Assembly: GCF_002024165.1 (NCBI RefSeq)
Contig: NZ_MWQN01000002.1
Location: forward strand, 992,001-1,056,000
DNA from: Embleya scabrispora
GTDB taxonomy: Bacteria > Actinomycetota > Actinomycetes > Streptomycetales > Streptomycetaceae
Length of the DNA: 64,000 bases
Reading direction: 5' to 3'
Made by a program: the position numbers and the translations under genes. Under the pieces are notes generated by a model that searched no databases, was not told the DNA's origin, and worked only from the letters and a program-made list of their open reading frames with translations. Positions 33,916 to 62,377 of the stretch are shown here, one piece after another (position 1 is the first letter of the stretch; each line of letters opens with the position of its first letter).

Positions 33916-34340
33916 CCGGGGCGGGCGTCCGTGGTCGAACCGCGCAACGCACCCGCCGCATCCGCGCACGCACCTCACGCACGCGCTCCACGCACCCGCA
34001 CACGCGCCTCACCTGCGCACGCGCCACGCGTCTCGCCCGCGTACGCGCTGCACGCGTCTCACTGCGCACGCGCCACGCGTCTCGCCTGCGTACGCGCTGC
34101 ACGCGTCTCGCCCGCGCACGCGCCACGCGTCTCACCTGCGCACGCGCTGCAGGCGTCTCGCCCGCGCACGCGCTGCACGCGTCTCGCCCCCGCGCACGCG
34201 CGCTTCGCCCGCTTTGCCTGCGCACAGGCCCCGCCCCGGTCCCCGCGCCCGCTTCGCCCCCGCACCGGCCCCGCTCCCGCCCCCGCCCCCGCACCGGCCC
34301 CGCTCCGGGCGCACAGGCTCCGCTTCCGCGTTCGTTTGTC
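33916..34340. other. Non-coding region dominated by simple repeats
   Basis: No gene is supported in these 425 bases. It contains the 25-bp tandem repeat described separately and, from about 34200 to 34320, GC-rich imperfect CCCGCACCGGCCCCGCT-like repeats. It separates two convergent units. Confidence 0.7.
34018..34193. repeat. Seven tandem copies of a ~25-bp unit
   Basis: The unit YACGCGCYRCACGCGTCTCG plus CCCGCG recurs about seven times with 24-26-bp spacing and few substitutions. Each copy contains the palindrome ACGCGT. Confidence 0.85.
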
Positions 34341-57816: not shown

Positions 57817-58266
57817 ATGCGTCGACTGTCCACGGCACTTGCCGCCACCGCGATGACGATCGGCGTCGGAGTCGGCGTGGCCACGCCGGTCCAGGCCGCT
57901 CCGGCGGACAAGCCGCAAGTGCTCTCCAGTTGGACCCAGACCAGCGCCGCCAGCTACAACGCCTGGTGGTCCGCCCGGCAGAACCAGGGCAACTGGGCCG
58001 CCTACAACTTCGACTGGTCCACCGACTACTGCAGCAGCTCGCCCGACAACCCGCTCGGCTTCCCGTTCCAGAACTCCTGTGCCCGGCACGACTTCGGCTA
58101 CCGCAACTACAAGGCGGCGGGTACCTTCGCCGCCAACAAGCCTCGCCTGGACAGCGCGCTGTACGAGGACCTGAAGCGGGTCTGCGCCCCGTACGGCGCG
58201 GTGGCCCGGGCGACCTGCAACAGCACGGCCTGGACCTACTACCAGGCGGTCAAGCTCCTCGGCTGA
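57817..58266 (+). CDS. Secreted prokaryotic phospholipase A2
   Basis: A 149-residue protein: signal peptide (MRRLSTALAATAMTIGVGVG, cleavage near VQA-AP) and a mature ~120-residue phospholipase A2 of the streptomycete type. The catalytic helix reads CARHDFGYRN with His-Asp; the calcium loop is in the preceding DYCSSSPDNPLGFPF. Four mature Cys (DYC, NSC, RVC, ATC) would form two disulphides. ATG at 57817 with TGGAGG six bases upstream. It releases fatty acids from glycerophospholipids outside the cell. Confidence 0.92.
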   Translation: MRRLSTALAATAMTIGVGVGVATPVQAAPADKPQVLSSWTQTSAASYNAWWSARQNQGNWAAYNFDWSTDYCSSSPDNPLGFPFQNSCARHDFGYRNYKAAGTFAANKPRLDSALYEDLKRVCAPYGAVARATCNSTAWTYYQAVKLLG

Positions 58267-59236: not shown

Positions 59237-59396
59237 GGCAAATCCCTTCCAAAAGGTTACTTGGTCGACTTTAAAGGGACTTCCCAAGAAAGAAGCGGAC
59301 ATTTCAACGAAACGCTGCGTGAAGTCCGGCAGCCCCGCGCGGTGCACACCTTCCGTGGCGTGTGGGCGTGTGATGCGGGCTGGAGGCTGTTGAGGT

Positions 59397-60408
59397 TTGC
59401 GCTTGTGGTTGCGGGGGCGCCGGCGCGGGGTGAGCCGCCGCCGGCACTCGGGGCTCCAACCCCCGAAACCCCCGACGAGACGGGCACATTGCTCGGCAGA
59501 ACCCGGCTGGCAACGGGGGAGCGGGAGGGCGACCCGGCGGGCGTCGCGCTTGTGGTTGCGGGTGGCCGGTGCGGGGCCGGTCCGAGTCGATGGTGGGCCG
59601 CCGCCAGCGTTCGGGGCTCCGAGACTTGGCGGTTCCGACGAGGCGGGCGTGTTGCTCGGCGAAAACCGGCTGGCAGCGGGGGCGGGGAGGGCGGTCGAGT
59701 CGGGTCCTCCGCGGGGCCTTCCCCAGTGGGCCGTGCGCTTCCGGCGGGCGTCGCGCTGTTGGTTGCGGGTGGCCGGTGCGGGGCCGGTCCGAGTCGATGA
59801 TGGGCCGCCGCCAGCGTTCGGGGCTCCAAGACTTGGCAGCTCCGACGAGGCGGGCACGTTGCTCGGCGAAAACCGGCTGGCAACGGGGGGAGGGCGCTTG
59901 GGTCGAGTCCTCCGGGGAGCCTTCCCGAGTAGGTCGGGCGTCTCCGGCGGGCGTCGCGCTGTTGGTTGCGGGTGGCTGGTGCGGGGCCGGTCCGAGTCGG
60001 TGGTGGGCCGCCGCCAGCGTTCGGGGCTCCGAGACTTGGCGGTCCCGGCGAGGCGGGCGTGTTGCTCGGCGAAAACCGGCTGGCAGCGGGGGCGGGGAGG
60101 GCGCTTGGGTCGGGTCCTCCGCGGGGCCTTCCCCAGTGGGCCGTGCGCTTCCGGCGGGCGTCGCGCTGTTGGTTGCGGGTGGCCGGTGCGGGGCCGGTCC
60201 GAGTCGATGATGGGCCGCCGCCAGCGTTCGGGGCTCCGAGACTTGGGGGTTCCGGCGAAGGGGGTGTGTTGCTTGGCGAAAACCGGCTGGCAGCGGCGGG
60301 CCGGAGTGGGGGCTCGGGTCGAGTCCGCCGGGCTCGCGTTCCCCAGTGGGCTGGCTGTCCTCGGCGGGGGTTGGGAGAGGAGTTGGGGCTCGAAACCGGA
60401 TCGCGAGG
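59397..60408 (+). repeat. Left arm of a large inverted repeat: tandem ~207-bp units
   Basis: The anchor GTTGCTCGGCGAAAACCGG recurs at 59651, 59858, 60061 and 60268, with a degenerate, shorter copy at 59488, giving unit lengths of 163, 207, 203 and 207. Other strongly kept blocks are GGGCCGCCGCCAGCGTTCGG and GGTGCGGGGCCGGTCCGAGT. Long open frames cross it only because GC is high; unit lengths are not all multiples of three and no ribosome site or domain is seen. Confidence 0.93.
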
Positions 60409-60621
60409 GGTGTTCTTACCTCGGTGTGGGAGAAAACCGCTGGTCAGTGCGGGCACGCGGCTGTTTCAGGTGCCTCGGGATCCGGTTTCGGCCCCGACTG
60501 GGCACTTTCGGTCTTTTCGCCGGCGTTGAGGGCGTCGGAGCGCGCGAAACCGGCACTCGACGCCCGACGTTCCACCCAGACGGCACAAGACCGCAGGTCA
60601 CCGAAGCCCGAAGCTCACAAC
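60409..60621. other. Spacer of the large inverted repeat
   Basis: 213 bases between the arms. It contains a seventh-like degenerate anchor (GAGAAAACCGCTGG near 60430) and TGCCTCGGGATCCGGTTTCG at 60471-60490, the inverted copy of the sequence at 17967-17986. No gene is visible. Confidence 0.75.
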
Positions 60622-61680
60622 CACCCGTTGCGATCCGGTTTCGAGCCCCAACCTCCTCCCCCACGCCCTCGGAGTACCCCGACCCACTCGTGAACGCAAG
60701 CCCGGCAGACACGACTTGAGCCCCCTCCCGGCCCGCCGCAGCCGGCCGCTTTTTCACCGAGCAACGCACCGTCCTCGCCGAAACCCCCAAGGCTCGGAGC
60801 CCCGAATGCCGGCGGCGGCCCACTACGCGTGCCGGACAAACCCCGCACCGGGCGCCGCGCAACCACAAGCGCAACGCCCGCCGGAGATGTCCGGCCTACT
60901 CGGGAAGGCTCCTCGAAGGACTCGACGCGGCCGCCCTCCCCGGCCCCCGTTGCCAGCCGGTTTTCGCCGATCAACGCGCCCGCCTCGTCGGGAGCTTCGA
61001 GTCTTGGAGCCCCGAACGCTGGCGGCGGCCCATCACCGACTCGGACAAACCCCGCACCGGCCGGCGCGCAGCCAAAGGCGCAACGCCAGTCGGGAACGCC
61101 CGGCCTACTCGGGAAGGCTCCCCGGAGGACTCGACCCGGCCGCCCTCCCTGCCCCCCGTTGCCAGCCGGTTTTCGCCGACTAACGCGCCCGCCTCGTCGG
61201 AGCTGCCAAGTCTCGGAGCCCCGAACGCTGGCGGCGGCCCATCACCGACTCGGACGAGCCCCGCACCGGCCACCCGCAACCAACAGCGCGACGCCCGCCG
61301 GAAGCGCCCGGCCCATTCGGGAAGGCTCCTCGGAGGACTCGACGCGGCCGCCCTCCCTGCCCCCCGTTGCCAGCCGGTTTTCGCCGAGCAACGCGCCCGC
61401 CTCGTCGGAGCTGCCAAGTCTTGGAGCCCCGAACGCTGGCGGCGGCCCATCACCGACTCGGACCGGCCCCGCACCGGCCATCCGCATCCACAAGCGCGGC
61501 GCCCGCCGGAGACGCGCCGGCCCATTCGGGAAGGCCCCGCGGAGGACCCGACTCGACCGCCCTCCCCGCCCCCGCTGCCGGCCGGTTTTCGCCGAGCAAC
61601 GCGCCCGCCTCGTCGGAGCCCCCAAGTCTCGGAGCCCCGGACGCCGGGCGCGGCTTACCCCACGTGCCGGGCCTGCCCCG
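60622..61680 (-). repeat. Right arm of the large inverted repeat: tandem ~208-bp units in opposite orientation
   Basis: The complementary anchor (CCGGTTTTCGCCGAGCAAC) ends at 60975, 61184, 61392 and 61600, with a degenerate copy ending at 60765; unit lengths 210, 209, 208, 208. The copies mirror the left-arm copies around a common centre near 60517-60521, and TTGGGGCTCGAAACCGGATC (60383-60402) is matched exactly by its complement at 60632-60651. The arms are therefore one inverted duplication of a whole array, not two independent arrays. Confidence 0.93.
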
Positions 61681-61711
61681 CATCGGCGTCCTGTGGCCGG
61701 AAGTGGGGGCC

Positions 61712-62377
61712 TCAGCGGTCGGTGTTCTGGTGGGGCTGGGGGCGGTAGCGGGCCAGGAACATGTCCACGCCGCCGGTGATCAGGCGGGCCGTCAGGTCCG
61801 CGTCGGGGGCGGCGCCCGTGGAGCCGTACGCGATGTGTGGCATCAGTACCAGGCCGGACAGCTGGATTGCGGCCAAGGGCACGTCGTCGATGGCGAGTTC
61901 GCCGCGTTCGACCAATCTGGTGAGCGCGGTGCGGACCACCACGTGGAAGCGGTCCGGGCCCAACTCCTGCCAGGTGCGGCCCAGTTCGGGTAGGCGGGGC
62001 ATCGAGCCCAGTACCACGTTGTGCAGCGCGAGCACCTCCGGGGTGGCGTGGCCGGCCACCCACGCCTCACAGATGGCGATCAGGTCGGCCCGTACGTCGG
62101 TGGAGGAGCCCAGGCGTTCCTCGATCAGGTGCATGGAGTCGAACAGCGCCCGATCGAGCATGTCGCCGACGATCGCGATGAACAGTGCCTCCTTGCTGCC
62201 GAAGTGGTTGTAGACGGTCACCTTCGCGACGCCGGCCTCGGCGGCGATGGTGTCCATGCCCACCCCGTAGCCGTCGCGCAGGAAGGCGTCGGTCGCCGCC
62301 TTCAGGATCGCCGCGCGCTTGCGTGCCGCGCGGTCACCCGAGGGGATGCGCTTGGGGGTCTGCTCGGCTGCCCACAC
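61712..62377 (-). CDS. TetR-family repressor
   Basis: A 221-residue regulator: TetR helix-turn-helix (about 20-66: MDTIAAEAGVAKVTVYNHFG) and a C-terminal TetR_C_AefR/WHG-like helical domain. The GTG at 62377 has GAGGAG seven bases upstream. It is divergent from a DHA2-type transporter, which it probably represses until a transported compound binds. Confidence 0.92.
   Translation of the reverse strand: MWAAEQTPKRIPSGDRAARKRAAILKAATDAFLRDGYGVGMDTIAAEAGVAKVTVYNHFGSKEALFIAIVGDMLDRALFDSMHLIEERLGSSTDVRADLIAICEAWVAGHATPEVLALHNVVLGSMPRLPELGRTWQELGPDRFHVVVRTALTRLVERGELAIDDVPLAAIQLSGLVLMPHIAYGSTGAAPDADLTARLITGGVDMFLARYRPQPHQNTDR

What the first reader, a model, noticed from the sequence alone, without database searches (positions are those of the whole stretch)
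59397..61680. Mirror-image array: five ~207-bp repeats inverted against five more around a 213-bp spacer
Seen directly: a conserved 19-base anchor recurs every ~207 bp (59651, 59858, 60061, 60268, degenerate 59488) and its complement recurs every ~208 bp (ends 60765, 60975, 61184, 61392, 61600). Paired copies share one symmetry centre (60517-60521 for four of five pairs), and a 21-bp inverted match flanks the spacer exactly. So a whole tandem array was duplicated in inverted orientation and has since drifted. It is non-coding as far as can be read, has no IS features and matches no named element I know. Possible roles: very long RNA hairpin or convergent/divergent non-coding RNA, recombination or fork-stalling site, nucleoid or partition site, or a retired recombination cassette.
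Basis: partly seen in the sequence, partly recalled or inferred. Interest (0 to 1): 0.85.

Follow-up and report, generated by a model that had tools for sequence, protein, structure and literature searches.

The report
Dispersed mirror-image repeat arrays in Embleya
This is one of about 43 copies in one soil-bacterium genome of a previously undescribed non-coding DNA element, in which two tandem arrays of ~208-base repeats face each other across a conserved centre; it resembles the foldback transposons of animals and plants, and no such family was found described in bacteria.

Summary
The mirror array (59393-61704) is one of about 43 copies dispersed through its genome, Embleya scabrispora NF3 (8 contigs, 10,958,352 bp). 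In the copies with both arms and the centre intact, the layout is the same: n units facing inward, a conserved ~380-390-bp core, then m units inverted (n, m = 1-7). The family is also in E. hyalina, with traces in a third Embleya draft genome. It is absent from a fourth Embleya genome and from all 146 other Streptomycetaceae genomes sampled. It is intergenic, non-coding, has no covarying RNA structure, and matches no Rfam, plasmid or phage record. It carries conserved DNA sites (unit AAAACCGGCTGGCA; core TGACCTGCGGTTTT twice, mostly 215 bp apart; GAAACCGG). 12 of 20 E. hyalina loci share sites with NF3, yet sequences at shared sites are hardly closer than those at unrelated sites (concerted turnover). 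The window's own site is empty in E. hyalina. Best reading: a foldback-like, non-autonomous dispersed element whose arms are arrays of protein-binding sites, homogenised by recombination. No transposase, target duplication or common terminus was found, so how it moves is inferred. A host nucleoprotein or 3'-end role is not excluded.

The parts
59393..59534 (+). outermost left unit, partial/degenerate (unit positions 5-162)
   Evidence: nhmmer unit profile, L061 4014-4155
59537..60354 (+). left arm: four full ~208-bp units in + orientation (59537-59735, 59744-59939, 59947-60145, 60154-60354)
   Evidence: nhmmer; TRF 59534-60351 period 207
60355..60678 (-). central core (conserved ~390-bp sequence, shortened here), imperfect palindrome, in minus orientation relative to the family consensus
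   Evidence: core profile hit 60364-60675, 228.9 bits minus vs 185.0 plus
60433..60446 (+). conserved core site AAAACCGCTGGTCA (reverse complement of the TGACC(T/A)GCGGTTTT type)
60587..60600 (+). second core site AAGACCGCAGGTCA
60386..60406 (+).
60679..61704 (-). right arm: five units in - orientation (60679-60881, 60891-61089, 61098-61298, 61306-61506, 61517-61704), with TGCC(A/G)GCCGGTTTTC in the last four
   Evidence: nhmmer; site positions 60952, 61161, 61369, 61577; TRF 60723-61644
61712..62377 (-). flanking TetR-family regulator whose stop codon is ~8 bp from the element (element at the gene's 3' end); not part of the element
   Evidence: Pfam TetR_N 3.8e-14, TetR_C_7 7.8e-22; gap 8 bp

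Best explanation
The array is one copy of a genus-restricted, non-coding, dispersed element with foldback-type anatomy: (unit)n - core - (inverted unit)m. SHOWN: dispersal (about 43 loci), fixed layout, conserved core and sites, variable copy number, presence/absence at orthologous sites, concerted turnover of sequence, more similarity between mirror-placed units than expected, core-deleted derivatives. INFERRED: the repeated AAAACCG-type sites are binding sites of one sequence-specific protein, so each arm is a multi-site platform and the two arms can be brought together. The long inverted homology lets arms recombine and copy each other (mirror homogenisation, core inversion), arrays grow and shrink by unequal exchange or slippage, and hairpin formation deletes centres. 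Copies spread rarely into intergenic DNA, mostly just downstream of genes, driven in trans or by ectopic recombination. It is then maintained mainly as selfish, satellite-like DNA.
For: Whole-genome search gives 169+ matches; 39 loci mapped, all inward-facing, plus 4 more. The core runs in either orientation relative to the chromosome while the arms always face inward. The window site is empty in E. hyalina, flanks 10 bp apart, with no relic detected. E. hyalina L096 is missing from NF3 and from G002. None in G002 or 146 other Streptomycetaceae. Core rate heterogeneity 7.5x binomial with near-invariant sites. GACCTGCGGTTTT occurs 58x in NF3, 40x in E. hyalina, 0 in G002, reversed-pattern control 0. 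Concerted turnover: units at orthologous loci 0.741 vs 0.748 at unrelated loci across species vs 0.771 within NF3, although flanks are mostly ~90-97% identical. Mirror-rank units more alike than permuted (0.836 vs 0.820, p=0.0005). Arm lengths correlate (rho 0.59, p=9e-5). Core-deleted copies L033, L089, L101. Random-like spacing on C1.
Against: No target-site duplication signal in 20- and 40-bp windows (a small excess at 80 bp). No common terminal sequence, although 43 of 78 outer ends fall within the first 20 unit positions. No Y1 transposase in the four Embleya genomes, and no transposase recognised in the two cores that carry an extra gene. 12 of 20 E. hyalina loci are at sites shared with NF3, so movement is rare or old. 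The NF3 L096 site holds a possible 17-bp relic (not significant by profile, E 2.5), so absence can also mean loss. Protein binding is not shown.
Confidence: 0.5

Rival explanations
1. Host-functional nucleoprotein sites: a sequence-specific chromosome protein binds the periodic sites (one per ~208 bp; core sites 215 bp apart), pairing arms to form a topological or insulating node.
For: Conserved sites against a variable background; tight unit spacing with median 208 bp and core spacing about 215 bp; 12 of 20 sites shared between species; present on contigs C1-C4.
Against: Absent from G002, a congener; random-like spacing on C1; copy number 1-7 per arm; window site empty in E. hyalina; strongly genus-restricted.
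Confidence: 0.25
2. 3'-end elements: long inverted arrays act as bidirectional transcription terminators, insulators or mRNA 3' stabilisers, like oversized BIMEs.
For: Elements lie nearer 3' than 5' gene ends (median 145 vs 274 bp, p=2.8e-5); convergent spacers over-represented (12 of 36 vs 17% expected) and divergent ones under-represented; neighbouring 3' ends rarely have their own strong hairpin (2 of 36 vs 24 of 118, Fisher p=0.04, post hoc; rank test p=0.23).
Against: No covarying RNA structure in unit or core; unit segment folds no better than shuffles; avoidance of promoters alone gives the same bias; 4 divergent cases.
Confidence: 0.13
3. Structured or long double-stranded RNA locus: transcripts across the mirror fold into a kilobase hairpin.
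For: Arms complementary at 86-92% over 200+ nt, a by-product of any inverted array.
Against: Few compensatory changes (5 of 1829 cells in units, 7-19 of ~1400-1500 in core); Rfam blank; single loci with core or arm lost.
Confidence: 0.05
4. Decayed remains of an extinct transposon or phage whose ends were repeat-rich, now inert.
For: Half-core relics (L159, L161, L164), core-deleted copies, no coding capacity.
Against: Sites remain conserved between species while other positions are variable; closely paired NF3 cores (support 0.999-1.0; up to 0.964 identity) point to recent copying.
Confidence: 0.07

Closest known systems
Foldback transposons (Drosophila FB, Galileo, Tetris with TIR-220 repeats; PMC4079207, PMC3688188)
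   Same: Long inverted arms made of a variable number of ~220-bp tandem repeats (Tetris) around a non-coding middle; non-autonomous; arrays change copy number; Galileo arms carry multiple transposase-binding sites.
   Different: Those are eukaryotic, with 8-10-bp target duplications (Tetris) and a flanking terminal domain. Here no target duplication, no common terminus, no transposase, an oriented conserved core, and the host is a bacterium.
BIME/REP and REPIN elements (RAYT-mobilised)
   Same: Extragenic, dispersed, palindromic arrangement, bias to 3' gene ends (the last from general knowledge).
   Different: REPs are 20-40 bp (PMC3733652); here units are ~208 bp and elements up to ~2.6 kb. 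No Y1 (Pfam PF01797) protein in any of the four Embleya genomes.
MITEs / enterobacterial RU elements
   Same: Short non-autonomous, non-coding intergenic repeats.
   Different: MITEs have fixed short TIRs, target duplications and fixed length (general knowledge); not seen here.
Satellite DNA with concerted evolution
   Same: ~208-bp tandem unit, concerted turnover, more degenerate units at array edges.
   Different: Satellites are long head-to-tail blocks; here short mirrored arrays at ~43 intergenic sites around a core.

Membership tests
Foldback transposon | inverted arms made of variable-number tandem repeats around a middle domain | tested here: met
Foldback transposon | target-site duplication | tested here: not met
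   longest direct repeat at ends equals shuffled pairing in 20- and 40-bp windows: 4.08 vs 4.12, 5.62 vs 5.61; small excess at 80 bp, 7.26 vs 6.75
Foldback transposon | common terminal sequence | tested here: inconclusive
   43 of 78 outer ends within the first 20 unit positions, the rest scattered; few flank similarities
Foldback transposon | mobilised by an identified transposase | not testable with these tools
Foldback transposon | presence/absence at orthologous sites | tested here: met
   window site empty in E. hyalina; L096 absent in NF3 and G002
REPIN/BIME | short (20-40 bp) palindromic REP unit | tested here: not met
   unit period 208 bp
REPIN/BIME | associated RAYT (Y1_Tnp) transposase in the genome | tested here: not met
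   PF01797: 0 of 4 Embleya genomes, controls positive
Structured non-coding RNA | covarying secondary structure | tested here: not met
   Rfam none
Protein-coding repeat | frame kept across units, triplet pattern, protein family | tested here: not met
   entropy by codon phase flat; spacing multiple of 3 in 57 of 143 listed; two arm ORFs without Pfam match

The most novel reading that the evidence does not exclude
A new class of bacterial repetitive element: a self-propagating or host-serving mirror-satellite that works by pairing two inverted arrays of protein-binding sites across an invertible core, spread over the chromosome of one actinobacterial genus.
Probability: 0.3. Interest if true: 0.85.

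Novelty: new variant of a known kind. Interest (0 to 1): 0.72.

Why it matters
Bacterial dispersed repeats described so far are mostly short. A family of roughly 1-2.6 kb mirrored satellite arrays at ~43 intergenic sites brings a eukaryote-like anatomy (foldback element, satellite, concerted evolution) into a bacterium with a very large genome. It makes testable questions about what protein reads such arrays, whether they move, and whether they fragment short-read Embleya assemblies (several E. hyalina contigs end in them).

Tried and rejected
Assembly artefact: rejected (long reads, dozens of loci, second species). Coding repeat: rejected. Structured RNA: rejected. Plasmid or phage origin: no match. 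Viral-contig scan with a 16-mer gave only single chance hits, two with weak profile scores. Genome-wide 19-mer scan: 16 hits, of which the two from E. hyalina NBRC 13850 are real; the other two records checked (L076, L081) had no profile hit, and the rest are single 19-mer matches judged chance. RAYT mobilisation: no Y1 protein. Core-borne transposase: L055 and L095 inserts carry genes without Pfam match. Family-wide profile search failed on the server and was replaced by a DNA search. Contig-end fragments were fetched for a telomere comparison that was not made. No paper found describing the repeats (the NF3 paper only counts '156 repeat regions').

Full report
Observation. The mirrored array is real. 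TRF and the repeat finder recover a 207-bp array at 59534-60351 and a 208-bp array at 60723-61644 in opposite orientation. A profile of the unit gives five + and five - units spanning 59393-61704. The centre is not a neutral spacer but a copy of a conserved core (about 60355-60678).

It is a family. The window lies at G000:C2:992001-1056000. G000 has 8 contigs and 10,958,352 bp, which is exactly the published figure for Streptomyces (now Embleya) scabrisporus NF3, GCA_002024165 (PMC5813959). The 2.3-kb query has 169+ matches. Thirty-nine loci were fetched and four more found later. In all 39, units on the left are + and units on the right are -; the core between them is 324-423 bp in nearly all (L048 is read as shorter because of an extra partial unit, L055 has a gene inserted in the core, and L033 has lost its core). 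Copy number is 1 to 7 per arm, partial units counted, and arm lengths correlate (rho 0.59, p=9e-5). The core is an imperfect palindrome (66% to its own reverse complement) but has a direction, and it occurs in both directions relative to the chromosome. Among the four later loci the layout is less regular: L117 holds two elements, L119 has lost its left arm.

What is conserved. In 49 aligned cores the variance of site conservation is 7.5 times binomial. The conserved blocks are TGACCTGCGGTTTT (twice), CGAAACCGGATC and GCCGGTTTCG. In each unit a strong block is CGGCGAAAACCGGCTGGCA. By eye, AAAACCGGCTGGCA and the complement of TGACCTGCGGTTTT (AAAACCGCAGGTCA) are variants of one site. The two core sites are mostly 213-217 bp apart. 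Unit spacing has a median of 208 bp. GACCTGCGGTTTT occurs 58 times in NF3, 40 in E. hyalina, 0 in G002, once in G003; the reversed-pattern control is 0 in all. There is no triplet pattern and no conserved frame, no supported RNA structure, and no plasmid or phage match.

Distribution. Of 150 Streptomycetaceae genomes searched, including the four Embleya, only NF3, E. hyalina (G001; its contig lengths equal those of NZ_BIFH01000013 and 15) and G003 match. The G003 match is at the very end of a contig, and one G003 contig ends near the site where NF3 L059 carries an element, so G003, with 1650 contigs, may hold unassembled copies; this is suggestive only. G002 has none.

Context. Elements are intergenic. 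Of 36 classifiable loci, 20 lie between tandem, 12 between convergent and 4 between divergent genes; length-weighted expectation is 56%, 17% and 27% (p=0.011). They lie closer to 3' ends (median 145 bp) than to 5' ends (274 bp; p=2.8e-5). Gene calls come from a home-made codon-bias caller, so single boundaries are approximate. Loci on C1 are spaced roughly at random (CV 0.93).

Gain, loss and turnover. The window's site is empty in E. hyalina: flanks matching 59386 and 61720 lie 10 bp apart, with no relic detected by profile. E. hyalina L096 is missing in NF3 and G002, but NF3 keeps a 17-bp string there that may be a relic (E 2.5 by profile), so loss also happens. Twelve of 20 E. hyalina loci are at sites shared with NF3. 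Despite flanks that are mostly ~90-97% identical, units at shared sites are no more alike (0.741) than units at unrelated sites across species (0.748), while units within NF3 are more alike (0.771). Cores show at most a weak orthology signal (mean 0.821 vs 0.801; ranks 3-20 of 37), and the core tree is star-like with a few closely paired NF3 cores, such as L063 and L031, which sit at sites that are both occupied in E. hyalina. I read this as ectopic conversion between loci; repeated independent insertion at the same sites, or saturation of free positions, is not excluded. Mirror-placed units in opposite arms are more alike than permuted pairings (0.836 vs 0.820, p=0.0005). In 3 of 7 ortholog pairs the core direction differs, as expected if inverted arms recombine, but because orthologous cores are barely closer than unrelated ones, replacement is an alternative. 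L033, L089 and L101 have lost the centre, as expected for hairpin deletion.

Interpretation. The anatomy matches foldback transposons: Tetris of Drosophila has arms with a variable number of ~220-bp tandem repeats around a non-coding middle and no autonomous copy (PMC4079207), and Galileo arms carry multiple transposase-binding sites (PMC3688188). It therefore works like a foldback element in layout and turnover. It is not filed as one: target duplication was tested and not found in 20- and 40-bp windows (small excess at 80 bp), there is no common terminus, and no transposase was found. The REPIN/BIME family is excluded by unit size and absence of Y1_Tnp. Protein binding, the driving enzyme and any host role are inferences.

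Weak points. E. hyalina is a fragmented assembly with scaffold gaps inside several arrays. Only four Embleya genomes were available. The 3'-end and terminator results are post hoc; the hairpin deficit next to elements is p=0.04 by Fisher test and not significant by rank test.

Noticed in passing
L043, L045, L046, L052 left flanks; L057 right flank (200 bp outside the arrays): A 22-26-nt motif close to GGCCTCAAACGCCGGCCGGGCTGA recurs in the flanks of several elements, a separate small dispersed repeat.
   Followed up: no
L055 5720-6499 (+) and L095 6249-7124 (-): Single genes without Pfam match sit inside the core of two elements, one in each species.
   Followed up: partly
L159, L161, L164: Solitary partial-core relics without recognisable full arrays.
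   Followed up: partly
L117 3654-5041: Two elements lie side by side in one locus.
   Followed up: no
window 34001-34303: Short-period tandem repeats (26/50 bp and 29/40 bp) unrelated to the element.
   Followed up: no
window 57844-58266: Prokaryotic phospholipase A2 (PF09056, 1.3e-35) next to a TrmO-like gene.
   Followed up: partly
L032 right flank and L044 left flank: 210 bp of flank is 93% identical between two element loci, suggesting a duplicated segment.
   Followed up: no
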